A DNA stretch of 64,000 nt from NCBI RefSeq assembly GCF_005877005.1, contig NZ_SSNH01000016.1:1-64000 (forward strand). Direction: 5' to 3'. The translations under genes and the position numbers were made by a program. Position 1 is the stretch's first letter; each line of letters starts with the position of its first letter. Shown piece after piece: positions 3,553 through 62,570 of the stretch. The stretch is from Sinomonas susongensis (GTDB lineage: Bacteria > Actinomycetota > Actinomycetes > Actinomycetales > Micrococcaceae). The notes beneath the pieces were generated by a model, which worked only from the letters and a program-made list of their open reading frames with translations, made no database searches and was not told the origin of the DNA.

Positions 3553-4002
3553 TTACGAGGCGGGGCGGTCCTCGCGCTTCTGCTTCGTCAGCGTCTCGTC
3601 GATGATGTTGCGGATCTCCAGCAGCAGTTCCGGCGACAGATCGCTCGTAAGGCTGCGGGCTGCGAAGCTCTTCACCTCGGCCTCCCGCATGGCGCGGAGA
3701 AGATCGAGCTGGGCGGCCACGCGGGCAGGCGTTTCGGCGTCGGCGTTCGTGAGGAACGCCGACGGAACTCCGAAGAAGTCCGCGAGGGCTTCGAGGAGGT
3801 CCGTGTCGGGCGTCATCGGTCCCGTACCAGCGCGCATGTAGTGCCACCGCTGCCGGGAGATGTGAAGGCCGCGGCCCTCGACGGCCTTCTTGATGTCCGG
3901 GAACGTGTACCGGCGGCCCCCCTCGGCCGCGACTACGTCGAGAAGCGTGTTGAGACGCTCAGCCAGAACCTCCTCGGGCTTCTGGGATTCGTGCTCAGGC
4001 AT
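3553..4002 (-). CDS. XRE/EspR-like DNA-binding regulator
   Basis: 149 residues. The N-terminal half resembles mycobacterial EspR and related actinobacterial XRE proteins: LAERLNTLLDVVAAEGGRRYTFPDIKKAVEGRGLHISRQR (written here in pieces: LAERLNTLLDVVA, then YTFPDIKKAVEGRGL, then HISRQRWHYMRAG), followed by DLLEALADFFGVPSAFL. The C-terminal half has amphipathic helices suited to dimerisation. Start ATG 4002 is chosen over 4029 because it follows a purine-rich GGAGGGGG and overlaps the membrane-protein gene by only 8 bp. Last gene of a three-gene leftward operon with an ImmA/IrrE-like protease, which suggests a protease-controlled regulator. A candidate operator lies in front of the operon. Confidence 0.8.
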   Translation of the reverse strand: MPEHESQKPEEVLAERLNTLLDVVAAEGGRRYTFPDIKKAVEGRGLHISRQRWHYMRAGTGPMTPDTDLLEALADFFGVPSAFLTNADAETPARVAAQLDLLRAMREAEVKSFAARSLTSDLSPELLLEIRNIIDETLTKQKREDRPAS

Positions 4003-4981
4003 AGAGGGCCCCCTCCGATTTCTGGACAAGCTTCGTTTCCGACTCGCTCAGCAGGTTCCCGCCAGCGGCGAGATCGCTGTCGAGAATTTCCACGAGAGCG
4101 CGATGAAGCCGCGCGCGTGGGTTGCGGCTGAGTACGCCCTTGAGAGGAACGGATACCGAGTCTATGACGACACTGGCGTGGGCCGTGCGGCGCCACACGG
4201 GGTGGAGCCGCACGAGGTGGTAGCGCTCGTTGAGCTGCCACTGTGCCACGCGCTCGGAAACCGAAGGCAGCATGAGCCCGAAGGAGAGCAGGAGCGCCGC
4301 GATTCCCTCGAGGGCGTGGAACGCGTTCTGCAGCACCGGCTCGTAGTCCAGGCCGACATAGGTCAGGACGATGATCTGCCGCGCGAACTTCGCGGCGAAC
4401 GCGACCACGGTGACGACGCAGCCCAGGGCGACCGCACTGAAGCCCGTGCGGAACATCGCGGAAGCCATCTGTGGGAGATAGCGCAGGCAGACGATCGTCA
4501 CTTCGACGGACACCGCCGCGAGGAATGCGCAGAGAGTCGCCATGAAGACGAAGACGCCGACGTCGCTCTGCGACCCGGCATCGAGCGCCAGGCGACCGAG
4601 CGGCTGGTCCGAGCTAACGGCGCCGGCCATTGACGCGCATGCGAACGCCACGCAGTACACCGTCATGGCCGCCGTCGTCTGCAGGAGGCCGCGGCGCAGG
4701 ACGGGTTCCTGCTCCGCGGGGGCGACGACGGCCTTCACGATTGCGGTGCGGAACAAGCCGAAGGAGAGCATGACAAGGCAGCCGCTCATGAGGCTCGCGA
4801 TGCCCGGGAAGCGGAGGCCCGCATCGATCGCATGGGAGACCGGAACGCCGCTGATGGTCGTCGCCAGAGCGGCGGGCAGCGCGACGAAGAAGACGAGATC
4901 CCCTCGCTGCCGTACACAGGAGGGCAGGCGGGAGAGCACGAGCAGCCACAGAGCCACGGTCGACGCAATCGTGATGCTCAT
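3995..4981 (-). CDS. Polytopic membrane protein, MAB_1171c/DUF6545-like
   Basis: 328 residues from ATG 4981, which overlaps the protease stop by 4 bp (ATGA). Seven or so hydrophobic segments cover roughly residues 1-240, alternating with short charged loops. The C-terminal cytoplasmic part begins with the ERYHLVRLHPVWR stretch that I associate with the MAB_1171c/DUF6545 family, then a helical SRNPRARLHRALVEILDSD region. That family is annotated as a putative transporter, but function is not established, and the context (protease upstream, DNA-binding protein downstream) suggests a signal-sensing or exporting role. A longer form to 5116 would overlap the protease and looks spurious. Confidence 0.75.
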   Translation of the reverse strand: MSITIASTVALWLLVLSRLPSCVRQRGDLVFFVALPAALATTISGVPVSHAIDAGLRFPGIASLMSGCLVMLSFGLFRTAIVKAVVAPAEQEPVLRRGLLQTTAAMTVYCVAFACASMAGAVSSDQPLGRLALDAGSQSDVGVFVFMATLCAFLAAVSVEVTIVCLRYLPQMASAMFRTGFSAVALGCVVTVVAFAAKFARQIIVLTYVGLDYEPVLQNAFHALEGIAALLLSFGLMLPSVSERVAQWQLNERYHLVRLHPVWRRTAHASVVIDSVSVPLKGVLSRNPRARLHRALVEILDSDLAAGGNLLSESETKLVQKSEGALYA

Positions 4982-5463
4982 CCGAAGATCCCTCGGAAGT
5001 TCCGCGGCTCGACGCGACCGGCGCGCCGGGTCCGCGCCAGGGCATCCGCGAAGAGGTCGGCGAGCGACTCCGCGACGATCTCGGGTTCCGTGTGACGCTG
5101 GCAGCGGGCGAGGCACTTGGAGACGAGGTCCGGGCTCAGGTCGGGCAGGAGGGTAGCGAGGTGATCTTCCTCGTCCATGAGCCGCTCGTGGTTGAGCGCC
5201 ATGTGTGCGAATTCGTGGAGGATGATCTGCTCGCGGTGCAGCGGCGACGCCGTCTCGGCGTGCAGGATGAGGTCAGTGGCAGGGAACGACAGCCAGAGCC
5301 CGGAAATCTGGTTGCGCCCGAGTTCGCTGACCTCGCGGATCACGATTTCCTTGCCGCGATCGTCCTCGAGGAGCTGGCGGAGGGCTTCGAGCGTGAGGCG
5401 CTCGGGGACGTCGAGGTCGCGAAACGCCGCGGCCGCTTGGCCGCGAAGCTGTTCCATGTCCAT
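4978..5463 (-). CDS. ImmA/IrrE-family zinc metalloprotease
   Basis: 161 residues from ATG 5463. The catalytic HEFAHMALNHE motif (HExxH) is at about residues 82-92, with downstream E/D residues in EPEIVAESLADLFADAL that may supply the third metal ligand. In characterised systems ImmA/IrrE proteases cut XRE-family repressors. Here an XRE regulator is encoded two genes downstream in the same operon, so that relationship is likely but inferred. The gene is first in the operon; its leader contains a palindromic site (5513-5524). Cytoplasmic, no signal peptide. Confidence 0.85.
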   Translation of the reverse strand: MDMEQLRGQAAAAFRDLDVPERLTLEALRQLLEDDRGKEIVIREVSELGRNQISGLWLSFPATDLILHAETASPLHREQIILHEFAHMALNHERLMDEEDHLATLLPDLSPDLVSKCLARCQRHTEPEIVAESLADLFADALARTRRAGRVEPRNFRGIFG

Positions 5464-5512
5464 GACGCCATCCTCGGTCTCACCTGCGGACTGAGCCCAG
5501 AATATCAGGGCT

Positions 5513-5540
5513 TGGACACGTCCATTTATCACGACTCGTC
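5513..5540. promoter_or_regulatory. Candidate operator/promoter of the ImmA-membrane-XRE operon
   Basis: TGGAC-AC-GTCCA at 5513-5524 is an inverted repeat with 5-bp arms, followed by ATTTATCACGACT and another GTCCA half-site (about 5537-5541). On the minus strand TTGTGA-N16-TGATAA just upstream could be a -35/-10 pair, which would place the palindrome near the transcription start. Related palindromes lie before fliA and before the diguanylate cyclase gene. Confidence 0.55.
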
Positions 5541-45641: not shown

Positions 45642-46195
45642 CTATGACACGTTAGGTGCGTCCTCGCCAGCGATGCAAACGCTGGCGGTGTCGAGAGGGG
45701 TCTGGGGCCCGTCCGTGGGGGTGAGCGGCGTGAAGGAAACGTTGAGCGAGTCCGTGATGAGGGTGCCCTGGGCCCTGTCGCAGCCGAGCTCCCGGAGCAC
45801 CTCGAGCTGGCCCGGGCGTTCGATCCCGGGCGCGCACACGGCCATTCCGAGGGCGTGGCCCATGTTGACGACGCCGCCCAGGATGACGGCGTCCGTCGGA
45901 TCGACGTCGATCCGGGCCGTGAGCGACGAGGCCGCGTTGAGCACGCTGAAGGGCAGGCTGCGGAGGAGCGTCATCGTGGCGTGCTCGCTCCCGTAGCAGT
46001 CGAGGGCGATCGCGACGCCCGCACTGCGCAGTTCCCTGAGCTGCGCAGCGGCATGCTCCGGGTCCACGAGTGCGACACGTCCGCCGAAGCAGAGCTGGAG
46101 GGACGTTCCGGGAAGGCCATGGCGTTCGAGGGCCTCGAGGACGTCTTTCGCGAGGCTTCCGGTTGAGAGCCACGCGGGGGAGACGTTGACCGCGA
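45642..46195 (-). pseudogene. Out-of-frame remnant of an EAL domain
   Basis: Reading from 46195 leftward in the frame that begins LIAVNVSPAWLSTGS gives an EAL-like C-terminal half: LAKDVLEALERHGLPGTSLQL, ALVDPEHAAAQLRELRSAGVAI and ALDCYGSEHATMTLLRSLPF. The preceding frame (gene at 46196-47335) stops just after SWDAPELGARA, the position of the EAL signature. Between these points a normal EAL domain has about 45 more residues. So an internal deletion has removed that part and shifted the frame. The remnant also lacks the DDFGTG signature (LDCYGSEH). No start of its own is seen. It cannot be a working phosphodiesterase. Confidence 0.7.
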
Positions 46196-47335
46196 TCAGG
46201 CTCGGGCGCCGAGCTCGGGGGCGTCCCAGCTGAGCTGGGCCTGGAGGCTCGAGCAGGAGCCGCTGGCCAAGTCGAGCACCGGTTCGAAGGAGACGTCGAA
46301 CGCGTCGGCCTCGATCGCCTCGGCGAGGCGCCGTCGGATCTGCGCGAGCCGCGCGAAGGGGTCGCTCTCGTGGCGATTGAGGCGCTGGACGCGCTGCTTG
46401 CCCTGCTGCTTCCCGGCGAGCATGGCTCCGTCCGCGTGCCGCAGGAGTGCGTTGAGTGGGCCGAGCTCGTCGTCGTCGTCGATCTCCTTCGCCATCGCCA
46501 AGCCGATGGTGGCCGAGAGCTGGAGGGACTGGTCGCCGAAGGGCATCGGCTCGAGGATCGCGTCGAGGACCCTCTGGCCGACCTTCTGTGCGTCGGCTTC
46601 GGAGATGTCGCTCAGGAGGGCGATGAACTCGTCGCCGCCGAGCCGGACCGCGACGTCACTCGTTCGCAGCGAGGCCTTCAGCCGTTCGCTGAACTGGACC
46701 AGGATGTCGTTGCCCGCGTCGTGGCCGTGGGTGTCGTTGACGGTCTTGAAGTTGTCGAGGTCGACGTAGAGGATGGCCGTTCGCTCGGGATCGGACATCT
46801 GCAGGAGCGAGGGCCCCTGCTCCGAGAGCCAGCGCCGGTTCGGCAGACCCGTGAGCGCATCGTGCCAGGCGGCGTAGCGGAGCGTCGCTGAGAGCTCTTC
46901 GAAGACGCGGGATACGGCGACGGCGCGCGGGCCGTCCTGGTCCACGAGCAGGAAGTCGTCGTATCGGACGGCCTCGGGGCGCGCGAGGGCGAGGTCGGCT
47001 GCGGCATCGAGGCCGATGTCGGCCTGCACGACGAGCTGGGACTCCGGCAGGAGCTTCTCCACGGTGCTCCGCGCGTTCAGTGCCCGGCCGTAGCCTAGGC
47101 GCCCCGAGAGCTGGTAGTCGACTTGGCTCCGCGCGAGCAGCGCCCAAGTTCCCTCGGAGCGCGAGACGGCTACCGCGCGGAGGCCCCGGTCGTGGCGGAA
47201 CAGCTCGTCCACGAACTGGACGGGGGCATCGGCCGGAACGACCGGGATCGGTACGCCGAGCTCCCCGATGCAATCGACGGGAGGACGCTTCTCGAGCGTA
47301 GCTCGCCAGCTCGGAACGCTGGGATCAGCGCCCAC
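46196..47335 (-). CDS. Diguanylate cyclase with CBS-like sensor and truncated EAL tail
   Basis: 379 residues from GTG 47335 (AGGAG 9 nt upstream). The N-terminal part (about 20-140) looks like two CBS units: VQFVDELFRHDRGLRAVAVS and DFLLVDQDGPRAVAVS. GGDEF domain about 155-310: RYAAWHDALTGLPNRRWL, AILYVDLDNFKTVNDTHGHDAG (in part: YVDLDNFKTVNDTHGHDAG) and intact RLGGDEFIALL, so c-di-GMP synthesis is expected. The last 50 residues are the beginning of an EAL domain that ends prematurely. The long upstream extension of this frame overlaps the glycosyltransferase and is not real. Confidence 0.8.
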   Translation of the reverse strand: MGADPSVPSWRATLEKRPPVDCIGELGVPIPVVPADAPVQFVDELFRHDRGLRAVAVSRSEGTWALLARSQVDYQLSGRLGYGRALNARSTVEKLLPESQLVVQADIGLDAAADLALARPEAVRYDDFLLVDQDGPRAVAVSRVFEELSATLRYAAWHDALTGLPNRRWLSEQGPSLLQMSDPERTAILYVDLDNFKTVNDTHGHDAGNDILVQFSERLKASLRTSDVAVRLGGDEFIALLSDISEADAQKVGQRVLDAILEPMPFGDQSLQLSATIGLAMAKEIDDDDELGPLNALLRHADGAMLAGKQQGKQRVQRLNRHESDPFARLAQIRRRLAEAIEADAFDVSFEPVLDLASGSCSSLQAQLSWDAPELGARA

Positions 47336-47366
47336 GTATCGTCTCTCCTGCCACTGGGCGGATAAT

Positions 47367-47378
47367 TGGACATGTACA
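47367..47378. promoter_or_regulatory. TGGACATGTACA site between cyclase and glycosyltransferase genes
   Basis: One mismatch from the perfect palindrome TGGACATGTCCA before fliA. It lies 32 bp before the cyclase GTG and 27 bp before the glycosyltransferase ATG, so a bound protein could affect both. Confidence 0.5.
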
Positions 47379-47404
47379 TCTTCAATGCTACGCGCTGGTA
47401 GATT

Positions 47405-48874
47405 ATGGTGGTGCGCACTCCATGGTTCCAGCGCGTCGTCGGCCTTCTCATCCTGGCCGCCGTGGCTCTCGCCGCCGCCCTCCTCTGGTGGGGGGTCGCC
47501 GCGAGCGAGCCACCCACCCTCTGGGCGCCCGTTCAGCTCACCCTCGCGGGAGCCTGGACCATACTGTACGACGCCCACGCGCCGGACACCCGCGTCGTCG
47601 TCGCCGCGATCGCCGTCGCCGTCCTCCTCGGCGCCGCCGTGGCCTTCACGGAGCGCCTCATAGCGAACCGCACCCGGCGCACTCCCGCCCACGTCAGGAC
47701 GCGCCCGATCGCGCCCAAGACCATCATGGCTGCGACCCGCGGGGTCTTCGCAGGCCACATGACGTTCACGGTCCTCATCCCGGCGCACAACGAAGAGGCG
47801 TCGCTGCCGGCGACCCTGGCATCGCTGCTCGCCCAGAACCGGCCGCCTGAACGCATCATCGTCGTCGCCGACAACTGCACCGACGGAACGGTCGACGTCG
47901 CGAGGAGCGCGGGCGTGGAGGTCTTCGAGACTTCCGGCAACACTGCGAAGAAGGGTGGGGCCCTGAACCAGGCTCTCCGCGAGGTGCTTCCCACCCAGGG
48001 CGACAACGACGTCGTCATGATCATGGACGCCGACACCACGCTCGACGACGGCTTCCTCGCCGAGGCATCGCGTCACTTCACCGACGATCGTGCGCTCATG
48101 GCGGTCGGCGGCCTCTTCTATGGGGAGCCCGGCCACGGCCTCATCGGCCAGTTCCAGCGCAACGAGTACGCGCGGTACAGCAGGGAGATCCAGCGGCGGC
48201 GCGGGCGCGTCTTCGTGCTGACCGGCACGGCGTCCGTCTTCCGTCCCGCCGCGCTGCGCGCCGTGGCCGAGAGCCGGGGCGTCCAGCTTCCCGGCCGCAA
48301 CGGCGACGTCTACGACACCGCCGCCCTCACGGAGGACAACGAGCTCACGCTCGCTATCAAATCCCTCGGCGGCCTCACGGTCTCGCCGTCGCAGTGCACC
48401 GTCTCGACCGAGCTCATGCCCACGTGGCGCATGCTCTGGGCGCAGCGGCTCCGGTGGCAGCGCGGCGCACTCGAGAACCTCGGCGCGTACGGCGTCACGC
48501 CCCAGACACTCCGGTACTGGGCCCAGCAGGTCGGGATCGGCTACAGCGTGATCGCGCTCGGTGCGTACCTCGTGCTGTTCGCGCTCATGATCCTCGCCGT
48601 GGACTCCTGGGTATGGTTCCCGTTCTGGATCGGACTCGGATCGCTGTTCATCGTCGAGCGCGTCGTGACCGTCTGGAAGGGCGGCTGGGCCGCTCGCCTG
48701 CTCGCGGCGACGATCCTGCCCGAACTTCTCTTCGACATGTTCCTCAACATCGTCTACGTCAAGGGCATCCTGGACATCACCCGCGGGCGGCAGGCCACGT
48801 GGAAGCACCTCGCCAAGGGGACCGGCTCGGCCGCCCGCGCGACGGCGACAGACGAGAAGGCGAAGATCGCATGA
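47405..48874 (+). CDS. Processive family 2 glycosyltransferase (polysaccharide synthase)
   Basis: 489 residues. Two N-terminal membrane helices, then a GT2 domain: TFVLIPAHNEEASLP-like TVLIPAHNEEASLPATLASL, VVADNCTDGTVDVA, MIMDADTTLDDGF (D,DxD) and LTEDNELTLAI. The processive-synthase motif is RMLWAQRLRWQRGALENLG (QxxRW), at about residue 345. At least three membrane helices close the protein. It likely makes and exports a beta-linked exopolysaccharide. No PilZ domain is seen. It is divergent from the diguanylate cyclase. Short leader with no good ribosome site, possibly leaderless. ATGA overlap with the next gene. Confidence 0.88.
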   Translation: MVVRTPWFQRVVGLLILAAVALAAALLWWGVAASEPPTLWAPVQLTLAGAWTILYDAHAPDTRVVVAAIAVAVLLGAAVAFTERLIANRTRRTPAHVRTRPIAPKTIMAATRGVFAGHMTFTVLIPAHNEEASLPATLASLLAQNRPPERIIVVADNCTDGTVDVARSAGVEVFETSGNTAKKGGALNQALREVLPTQGDNDVVMIMDADTTLDDGFLAEASRHFTDDRALMAVGGLFYGEPGHGLIGQFQRNEYARYSREIQRRRGRVFVLTGTASVFRPAALRAVAESRGVQLPGRNGDVYDTAALTEDNELTLAIKSLGGLTVSPSQCTVSTELMPTWRMLWAQRLRWQRGALENLGAYGVTPQTLRYWAQQVGIGYSVIALGAYLVLFALMILAVDSWVWFPFWIGLGSLFIVERVVTVWKGGWAARLLAATILPELLFDMFLNIVYVKGILDITRGRQATWKHLAKGTGSAARATATDEKAKIA

Positions 48875-61481: not shown

Positions 61482-61642
61482 GCTTCCTCCGATCAGGGAA
61501 CCTGTTCCGGGCGTGCCATTCCACGCTATGCCTGCAGCGTGTCCGGCACAACTGCCCGTGTTTGCTCCAAGTTGTCGCGGAGTTTCCGTTCTGGACACCT
61601 CTCTTGACTCTATTTGTCACGACTGCGACACGCCCAAACAAA

Positions 61643-61688
61643 AAGACATGTCCAAATACCAGTTTTACGTGCACAATGGACATGTCCA
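61643..61688. promoter_or_regulatory. Two TGGACATGTCCA-type sites before fliA
   Basis: AAGACATGTCCA at 61643-61654 and the perfect 12-bp palindrome TGGACATGTCCA at 61677-61688, with centres 34 bp apart (about three helical turns). TTTGTCACGACT (61613-61624) just upstream also recurs, with one change, beside the site before the ImmA operon. The start of fliA is 76 bp further on. Confidence 0.65.
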
Positions 61689-61763
61689 ATGAGGTCCCAT
61701 GGCTGGGGGAGCCGGGTCTCGCGCTTGGGCTCCGTGGAAGACAAACGTCTCGCAGGGGTGTAG

Positions 61764-62570
61764 GTGAAGATCGAAGAACGCAATCGCTTGGTGCTGGAGC
61801 ATCTCCCGCTCGTGGGCTACCTGGTCTCCGACCTGTGTGCGCGAGCGACCCACCTCTCGCGTGAGGACATGGCCTCCGCCGGGGCGCTCGGTCTCGTGCT
61901 CGCGGCCGAATCGTTCGACTCGAGCATGGGCGTTCCCTTCGGGGCCTTCGCCCGGCGTCGGATCACGGGCGCGCTCATGGACGAGCTCCGGTCCCTCGAC
62001 TGGGCCGGGAGGGGGGCCCGCAAGCGCATGAAGGCAGTGAGTGCTGTCACCGAGACGCTCACAGCCAGCCTCGGCCGGAAGCCGACGAACGACGAGATCG
62101 CTGCGGCCCTCGGGGTGACCCGCGAAGCCGTCGACGAAGCCGCTGCCGATGCCGCCCGCACCGTGAACGCCCTCGACGAGAGCGTCGCGGACACGCTCGT
62201 AGCGGATGCGGTGGCACCCGAGGAGGCGACGCTCGCCGGGGAGCGGACACGCTACCTCCGCGCAGCCGTCGAGGCGCTGCCCGAACGGCTTCGCCTCGTG
62301 GTGACCGCGATCTACCTCGAAGGCAGCTCCGTCAAGGAGGTCGCCGAGAGGTTCGGCATCAGCTCGTCTGCCGTGTCACAGCAGCGAAGCGAAGCCATCC
62401 GTCTCCTGCGCGAAGGCCTCGACGTGCACTATCCGGACAGGCCCGACGTCGCGCCCGCCGTCGAATCCCGCGCCATGTCCCCGCGCCGCGCGGCCTACCT
62501 CGAAAGCTTCGCCGAGGCGGTCCGCAGCGTTGGACCCGAACGTCAGCTGGCCTCGCCGGCCGCGTCGTAG
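61764..62570 (+). CDS. fliA: Flagellar sigma factor (FliA/WhiG/SigD family)
   Basis: 268 residues from GTG 61764 (AGGGG upstream). Region 2 includes RNRLVLEHLPLVGYLVSDL, MASAGALGLVLAAESFDSS and FGAFARRRITGALMDELRSLDW, the FliA/WhiG hallmark (in part: RRITGALMDELRSLDW). Region 3 LGRKPTNDEIAAALGVTREAV. Region 4 YLEGSSVKEVAERFGISSSAVSQQRSEAIR (in part: EVAERFGISSSAVSQQR). It should read the five GCCGATA-type promoters of this window. No FlgM anti-sigma gene is visible. Its own promoter region has palindromic sites shared with other regulators rather than a FliA promoter. Confidence 0.93.
   Translation: MKIEERNRLVLEHLPLVGYLVSDLCARATHLSREDMASAGALGLVLAAESFDSSMGVPFGAFARRRITGALMDELRSLDWAGRGARKRMKAVSAVTETLTASLGRKPTNDEIAAALGVTREAVDEAAADAARTVNALDESVADTLVADAVAPEEATLAGERTRYLRAAVEALPERLRLVVTAIYLEGSSVKEVAERFGISSSAVSQQRSEAIRLLREGLDVHYPDRPDVAPAVESRAMSPRRAAYLESFAEAVRSVGPERQLASPAAS

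What the first reader, a model, noticed from the sequence alone, without database searches (positions are those of the whole stretch)
61643..61688. A shared palindrome (TGGACATGTCCA) ties an ImmA/membrane/XRE cassette to fliA and to c-di-GMP/polysaccharide genes
Seen: the perfect 12-bp palindrome at 61677-61688 and a second copy at 61643-61654 before fliA; TGGAC-AC-GTCCA at 5513-5524 before the ImmA operon; TGGACATGTACA at 47367-47378 between the diguanylate cyclase and the glycosyltransferase. TTTGTCACGACT (61613-61624) and TTTATCACGACT (5525-5536) add a second shared element between two of the sites. All lie in intergenic DNA. Inference: one dimeric regulator, most simply the XRE protein at 3553-4002, controls its own operon, the flagellar sigma factor and the sessile-state genes. 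I know of no described regulon of this kind.
Basis: partly seen in the sequence, partly recalled or inferred. Interest (0 to 1): 0.8.

Follow-up and report, generated by a model that had tools for sequence, protein, structure and literature searches.

The report
EspR-like switch linked to flagellar sigma
In the soil bacterium Sinomonas, a small DNA-binding protein made together with a protease and a membrane protein appears to use one shared DNA tag to control itself, the sigma factor for flagella and some cell-surface genes; this rests on genome comparison and has not been shown in the laboratory.

Summary
The palindrome is real and not a chance match. The window lies in Sinomonas. The full site is ATTGGACATGTMCAAT. 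Two copies (three in G007) stand before fliA in 9 of 9 Sinomonas genomes with this sigma factor, in otherwise poorly conserved DNA. One copy stands before the ImmA/membrane/XRE operon in 6 of those 9, and before the glycosyltransferase in 4 of 7 genomes that keep it. The shared TTTRTCACGACT element is not conserved and should be dropped.

The site goes with the XRE gene: half-site matches have the other palindrome arm at 65 of 99 places in XRE-bearing genomes and 1 of 22 in genomes without that orthologue. Related XRE/ImmA cassettes in three other genera carry two other CATG-centred palindromes, nearly confined to the cassette in the 16-17 genomes searched. The XRE protein is EspR-like.

Best reading: a membrane-coupled ImmA/EspR-like switch that has taken over flagellar and surface control. 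DNA binding, proteolysis and the sign of regulation are inferred. Ten paper searches found no description. It is a new variant of a known kind.

The parts
61675..61690 (.). operator 2 before fliA, AATGGACATGTCCAAT
   Evidence: matrix score 29.2; place conserved in 9 of 9 genomes with this fliA
61641..61656 (.). operator 1 before fliA, AAAAGACATGTCCAAA, 34 bp upstream of operator 2
   Evidence: score 21.2; place conserved in 9 of 9 genomes; spacing of the pair 30-34 bp in 8 genomes, three sites 21 and 14 bp apart in G007
61613..61633 (.). separate conserved element TGTC-N8-GACACGC upstream of operator 1, probably the site of another factor
   Evidence: alignment of 9 genomes; one base longer in G001; in G005, G008 and G013 it is TGACACGGYGTGTCACGC
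61764..62570 (+). fliA-type sigma factor gene (FliA/WhiG family)
   Evidence: TIGR02479 E 3e-44, below its curated cut-off; sigma-70 regions 2, 3 and 4
5511..5526 (.). operator before the ImmA operon, CTTGGACACGTCCATT
   Evidence: score 19.6; equivalent site in 6 of 9 genomes, absent in G005, G008 and G013
5499..5504 (-). probable -10 box TATTCT of the ImmA operon, preceded by TGA
   Evidence: sequence and alignment; inference
4978..5463 (-). ImmA-like metalloprotease with HEFAH
   Evidence: HEXXH here and in all 18 relatives read; Peptidase_M78 below cut-off
3995..4981 (-). multi-pass membrane protein, MAB_1171c / DUF6545 type
   Evidence: NF042915 E 1e-21, below cut-off; DUF6545 E 0.0017, below cut-off
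3553..4002 (-). EspR-like XRE regulator, proposed reader of the palindrome
   Evidence: EspR is the best PDB sequence match, E 1e-5, and the best fold match; residues 49-62 of the HTH region invariant in 10 genus orthologues
47365..47380 (.). operator before the glycosyltransferase, ATTGGACATGTACATC
   Evidence: score 27.1; equivalent site in G001, G006 and G007, absent in G005, G008 and G013
47405..48874 (+). family 2 glycosyltransferase
   Evidence: PF00535 E 2.4e-25
46196..47335 (-). GGDEF protein; start by homology near 47050; reading frame appears interrupted near 46208 compared with a relative
   Evidence: PF00990; comparison with the G006 protein

Best explanation
The palindrome is the operator of the EspR-like XRE protein at 3553-4002. 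The protein binds, probably as a dimer, at ATTGGACATGTMCAAT: at its own ImmA-membrane-XRE operon, at a pair of operators before fliA, at the glycosyltransferase next to the GGDEF gene, and, in other Sinomonas species, at cell-wall hydrolase and small membrane-protein genes. It is more likely a repressor than an activator, but the sign is open. A signal at the membrane protein is proposed to free or activate the ImmA-like protease, which removes the XRE protein and so changes fliA and surface-gene expression together. Shown by comparison: the sites, their conservation, their link to the XRE gene, and cassette-specific palindromes in relatives. Inferred: DNA binding, dimerisation, sign, proteolysis, the signal. 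The stated confidence is for the XRE protein reading the palindrome and acting on fliA and, in most species, its own operon; the protease and membrane steps are less certain.
For: fliA sites in 9 of 9 genomes with this fliA. XRE orthologues of 69-100% identity in 10 of 15 Sinomonas genomes, including all 9 with fliA. Exact half-site counts 7-20 per genome in the 9 genomes with both genes, 4 in G004 (XRE, no fliA match), 2-6 in the 5 genomes with neither; reversed-pattern control 2-7. Other arm of the palindrome, not part of the search pattern, at 65 of 99 XRE+ places and 1 of 22 XRE- places, Fisher p 7e-8. G004 keeps two palindromic intergenic places, so the site goes with XRE and not only with flagella. 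Related cassettes: G015 and G028 (XRE about 47% identical) each have four TTGAGCATGCTCAA-type copies before their XRE gene, a pattern found in 2 of 16 genomes searched, those two; G020 (about 42%) has TGAAACATGTTTCA exactly twice, once before its ImmA gene and once just past the 3' end of its XRE gene, with no exact copy in the other 16 genomes searched; the G006 paralogue (about 46%) has two sites scoring about 14 before its gene. EspR sequence and fold match. HEXXH in the ImmA protein.
Against: G005, G008 and G013 lack the site at the ImmA operon and the glycosyltransferase, and G004 lacks it at its XRE gene, so self-regulation through this site is not universal. Total half-site counts in G006 (7 against 5 in the reversed control) and G009 (7 against 7) are not clearly above control. 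By matrix score of 20 or more the contrast is weaker: 68 of 99 against 5 of 22, p 1.6e-4, all five in predicted genes. The genomes are related, so these counts are not independent events; G011, counted as XRE-, has a 37% EspR-like gene of another subfamily. No clear CATG palindrome was found at the cassettes of G018 and G031, and the near-palindrome finder reported none at the G006 paralogue. No -10 box could be recognised at fliA. An apparent fixed operator-to-box distance fell to 2 flank families at each spacing when similar flanks were merged. The known EspR motif, TTTGC[TC][GA] (PMC3315491, passages), does not resemble this palindrome. Intergenic calls rest on a home-made gene finder.
Confidence: 0.7

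Rival explanations
1. A sub-reading of the best explanation, not exclusive with it: the XRE protein reads the palindrome but acts as an activator of fliA and the surface genes, with ImmA switching motility off by destroying it.
For: In GT2-type promoters the site centre lies 26 bp before a TANNNT box, near -38, with no recognisable -35. EspR is described as acting positively on espACD (PMC3315491, passages).
Against: The fixed spacing is not robust once similar flanks are merged. At the ImmA promoter the site lies just upstream of the -10 box, in the -35/-10 spacer, in five of the six genomes that have it, which suits a repressor.
Confidence: 0.3
2. Another regulator, encoded elsewhere and shared by the same species, reads the palindrome; the XRE gene is one of its targets or a neighbour.
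For: Four XRE+ genomes have no site at their own cassette (G005, G008, G013 and G004). The XRE gene and fliA lie 32-78 kb apart on one contig in five genomes, so any regulator in the flagellar region would show a similar distribution.
Against: G004 has XRE and palindromes but no fliA match. Related cassettes in three other genera carry two other palindromes at the cassette itself, which a common outside regulator does not explain.
Confidence: 0.17
3. The shared palindromes are chance resemblance in a GC-rich genome.
For: The looser pattern with two mismatches gives 25 matches against 14.1 expected. One of the two perfect 12-letter copies in this genome lies inside a predicted gene.
Against: 0 of 200 shuffles gave a high-scoring site against 4 observed; 9 of 9 conservation at fliA.
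Confidence: 0.02

Closest known systems
ImmR/ImmA of ICEBs1 and DdrO/IrrE (PprI) of Deinococcus (features recalled; IrrE cleaving DdrO seen only as a reference title)
   Same: XRE-type regulator encoded with an HEXXH protease of the ImmA/IrrE type; palindromic operator at its own promoter
   Different: Here a membrane protein gene sits between them, the regulator is EspR-like, and the proposed targets are a flagellar sigma factor and surface genes instead of mobile-element or DNA-damage genes; cleavage is untested
EspR of Mycobacterium tuberculosis
   Same: Best sequence and fold match; its sites lie mostly near genes of cell-wall function (PMC3315491, passages)
   Different: EspR is described as a nucleoid-associated protein with hundreds of sites and a TTTGC[TC][GA] core (PMC3315491, passages); here there are few sites, a 14-16 bp CATG-centred palindrome, and an ImmA partner
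SinR/SlrR of Bacillus subtilis
   Same: SinR as master regulator of the choice between motility and biofilm (PMC6123443, start of abstract in a search listing); SinR appears among weak fold matches
   Different: No ImmA protease cassette is recalled there; no orthology claimed; its operator was not compared
[quoted passage not shown] the names RsiG and WhiG are recalled)
   Same: Control of a FliA/WhiG-family sigma factor in actinobacteria (recalled)
   Different: That switch acts on the sigma protein through c-di-GMP; this one is proposed to act on fliA transcription

Membership tests
ImmR/ImmA-type regulator-protease pair | HEXXH metalloprotease encoded in the same operon as an XRE regulator | tested here: met
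   HEFAH at residue 83; reading frames overlap at 4978-4981 and 3995-4002; HEXXH in all 18 relatives read; in G004 the XRE gene is turned around
ImmR/ImmA-type regulator-protease pair | palindromic operator at the cassette's own promoter | tested here: met
   here and in 6 of 9 genus genomes with fliA (this one included), plus cassettes of G015, G028 and G020; not met in G005, G008, G013 and G004
ImmR/ImmA-type regulator-protease pair | protease cleaves the regulator | not testable with these tools
   needs a protein assay
EspR-like XRE regulators | sequence similarity through the N-terminal HTH and following helices | tested here: met
   phmmer E 1e-5 over residues 12-117
EspR-like XRE regulators | EspR fold | tested here: inconclusive
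   EspR chains are the best Foldseek matches, but best E is 4e-3, rmsd over the full length is about 8-10, and residues 111-140 have pLDDT about 60
EspR nucleoid-associated protein proper | TTTGC[TC][GA] core motif | tested here: not met
   the sites here read ATTGGACATGTMCAAT; EspR motif from PMC3315491, passages
FliA sigma factor | sigma-70 regions 2, 3 and 4 and FliA/WhiG family match in a flagellar cluster | tested here: met
   Pfam regions; TIGR02479 E 3e-44 but under its cut-off; flagellar genes in the same window

The most novel reading that the evidence does not exclude
A membrane-coupled protease/EspR-like repressor cassette, of a kind that in the few related genomes examined seems to regulate mainly itself, was captured at the edge of the Sinomonas flagellar cluster and became a lifestyle switch that couples fliA, surface polysaccharide and cell-wall remodelling to regulated destruction of the repressor. 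Its relatives form a set of cassettes, each lineage with its own private CATG-centred palindrome.
Probability: 0.4. Interest if true: 0.72.

Novelty: new variant of a known kind. Interest (0 to 1): 0.55.

Why it matters
How flagellar genes are switched on in actinobacteria looks little described in the papers I found. This gives a concrete regulator, operator and target list that can be tested directly, and suggests that a protease-repressor pair, known elsewhere (from memory) for mobile elements and DNA damage, can be re-used for motility. The palindromes and regulators of related cassettes also offer a natural set for learning how this protein family reads DNA.

Tried and rejected
Second shared element TTTRTCACGACT: rejected, not conserved. 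Fixed spacing between operator and -10 box as proof of mode: over 80 sites the two spacings had 9 and 7 boxes against a mean of 0.88, but after merging similar flanks (25 families, probably merged too far) each had 2 families, with uncorrected shuffle fractions 0.018 and 0.01; not used as evidence. Tad pilus as a conserved target: of 26 TadE matches in 15 genomes, 25 loci were read and only those of G013 and G008 have a site scoring over 20, with one weak site (15.9) in G005; treated as species-specific. fliA of other genera: no site scoring 9 or more upstream in the six loci read, G028, G030, G020, G031, G047 and G041, out of 15 genera other than Sinomonas with a match. Finding a -10 box for fliA by eye: failed. 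Paper searches gave no description of this regulon; several listings were mostly unrelated papers.

Papers: PMC12565409 seen as outline, a term search and part 1 of its results; PMC3315491 and PMC10746217 as passages; PMC8325347, PMC6123443 and all others only in search listings. Supplementary files were not opened (no look-ups allowed). Features of ImmR/ImmA, DdrO/IrrE and SinR/SlrR beyond these listings are recalled.

Full report
What is there. The window belongs to a genome of the genus Sinomonas (family Micrococcaceae, from memory): the 7 named loci that the XRE alignment found in GTDB genomes are all Sinomonas. The ImmA-like gene (4978-5463), a multi-pass membrane protein gene (3995-4981) and an XRE gene (3553-4002), all on the minus strand, overlap end to start and so look like one operon. 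They sit at one edge of the flagellar region: flgN, flgK and a flagellin-like gene at 6.8-9.6 kb, flagellin at 11 kb, fliF at 17 kb, fliP at 54 kb. The FliA/WhiG-type sigma gene is at 61764-62570. The XRE protein matches EspR best by sequence (E 1e-5, residues 12-117) and by predicted fold (best Foldseek E 4e-3, poorly superposed over the full length).

The observation. The perfect palindrome at 61677, the one-mismatch forms at 5513 and 47367, and the places named are right. The copy at 61643 has two mismatches. A matrix built from the 19 fliA sites of 9 genomes has consensus ATTGGACATGTCCAAT. The window has four sites at 19.5 or more, and 200 shuffles gave none; two of the four helped to build the matrix. 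In the rest of the genome the 12-letter core alone is a poor guide: the other perfect copy lies in a predicted gene. The 16-letter site does better: of the 19 own-genome places read (15 more came without a locus), the 5 scoring 19.6 or more are all outside predicted genes, and 12 of the other 14 are inside.

Footprinting. Of 15 Sinomonas genomes held, 9 have this sigma gene. All 9 carry palindromes before it: two, 30-34 bp apart, in 8 genomes, and three in G007. The DNA around them aligns poorly (45 of 314 columns invariant over the 250 bp aligned, many of them in the sites) and the upstream gene differs among genomes. Upstream of the sites is another conserved element, TGTC-N8-GACACGC, possibly the site of a different factor. 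The ImmA operon has the palindrome in 6 of these 9 genomes; G005, G008 and G013 lack it. The glycosyltransferase has orthologues in 7 of 15 genomes, with the palindrome before it in 4 (G000, G001, G006, G007) and not in G005, G008, G013.

Link to the XRE gene. Orthologues of 69-100% identity occur in 10 of 15 genomes, namely all 9 with fliA plus G004. G011, without such an orthologue, has a 37% EspR-like gene of another subfamily. A chance draw would put all 9 fliA genomes among the 10 with probability 0.002, but relatedness makes this figure too strong. The half-site pattern DACATGTMYAA gave 136 matches in the 15 genomes, against 73 for the reversed pattern; 121 places remain after merging double hits on one palindrome, and none was dropped. 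Raw counts exceed the control clearly in 7 of the 9 genomes with both genes, but not in G006 (7 against 5) or G009 (7 against 7). In XRE+ genomes 82 of 99 places are outside predicted genes; in the 5 XRE- genomes 5 of 22 (Fisher p 1e-7). The gene caller is home-made, and a few 'intergenic' places lie in long gaps that are probably uncalled genes. A test that does not depend on gene calls asks for the other arm of the palindrome, which was not part of the pattern: 65 of 99 against 1 of 22 (p 7e-8); by matrix score of 20 or more it is 68 of 99 against 5 of 22 (p 1.6e-4). G004, with the XRE gene but no fliA match, still has two palindromic intergenic places. Residues 49-62 of the HTH region are invariant across the 10 orthologues.

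Related cassettes. EspR-like XRE genes with ImmA-like genes in other genera have other CATG-centred palindromes. G015 and G028 (about 47% identical) each have four TTGAGCATGCTCAA-type copies before their XRE gene; the pattern TTGWGCATGCDCAA occurs in 2 of 16 genomes searched, those two, and outside the cassette only once, in a predicted gene of G015. G020 (about 42%) has TGAAACATGTTTCA exactly twice, once before its ImmA gene and once just past the end of its XRE gene; of the other 16 genomes searched none has an exact copy and two have a one-mismatch copy. The second XRE gene of G006 (about 46%) has two sites scoring about 14 before it and, by eye, a third. Against: the near-palindrome finder reported none at that G006 gene; G018 and G031 showed no CATG-centred palindrome; and the region between the XRE and ImmA genes of G004 lacks the Sinomonas site.

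Other candidate targets. They include LGFP and/or SLT and LysM/SLT cell-wall proteins (Pfam on the G005, G007 and G013 genes; G008 by similarity), TM2 membrane proteins (G000, G001, G005), DUF4190-type proteins (G001 by Pfam, below cut-off for that gene; G007 and G010 by similarity), an unknown small gene with two sites (G000, where the gene call is weak, and G005, G008, G013), and a Tad pilus operon only in G008 and G013. These are assignments by nearness, and many sites have no clear target.

How it probably works. Inference: an XRE dimer on the palindrome represses its own operon, where the site lies just upstream of a TG-extended TATNCT box in five of the six genomes that have it (about ten bases further upstream in G001), and acts on fliA through two operators. 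The ImmA protein keeps HEXXH here and in all 18 relatives read, and by analogy with ImmR/ImmA and DdrO/IrrE (recalled) would remove the XRE protein on a signal, perhaps through the membrane protein. The sign at fliA is open: at some promoters the site lies near -38, which an activator could use, but the spacing signal did not survive merging of similar flanks.

Novelty. A regulator-protease pair with its own operator is known. An EspR-like regulator with a private CATG-centred palindrome, a membrane partner, and fliA as target are not described in the papers I found. PMC12565409 catalogues palindromes at XRE genes by computation and tested ten; its main text, searched for CATG, Sinomonas, Arthrobacter, motility and DUF6545, has none of these. 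Its supplementary motif tables were not opened, so the palindrome itself may already be listed there.

Noticed in passing
window 61613-61633: Element TGTC-N8-GACACGC, conserved before fliA in the 9 genomes aligned (one base longer in G001) and a near-perfect inverted repeat (TGACACGGYGTGTCACGC) in G005, G008 and G013; probably the site of a second regulator of fliA.
   Followed up: partly
window 45645-47050: The GGDEF(-EAL) gene beside the glycosyltransferase matches a 497-residue relative from G006 in two pieces with a break near 46208, so it looks interrupted in this genome; described only.
   Followed up: partly
L065 and L066 (G015, G028): Four TTGAGCATGCTCAA-type palindromes stand before an EspR-like XRE/ImmA pair in each; elsewhere in those genomes the pattern was found once, in a predicted gene of G015.
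   Followed up: yes
L071 (G020:C10:56572 and 59739): Two perfect TGAAACATGTTTCA copies flank the XRE/ImmA cassette, the only exact copies in the 17 genomes searched.
   Followed up: yes
L068, L069, L072: Another EspR-like/ImmA subfamily has ACTGTATCAGT / CTGATACAGTG-like repeats before its ImmA gene (seen by eye).
   Followed up: no
L114:12106-12729 (G013) and L103:6328-6558 (G000): Unknown small protein family with two palindromes before it; in G005, G008 and G013 it lies right beside fliA. No Pfam match.
   Followed up: partly
L063 (G004): Here the XRE gene is turned around and stands divergent from the ImmA and membrane genes, in a genome without a fliA match.
   Followed up: partly
L009 (G000:C5:76063): A further intergenic site in this genome, TGGACAGGTCCA in a 16-letter context scoring 22.3; its target gene was not identified.
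   Followed up: no
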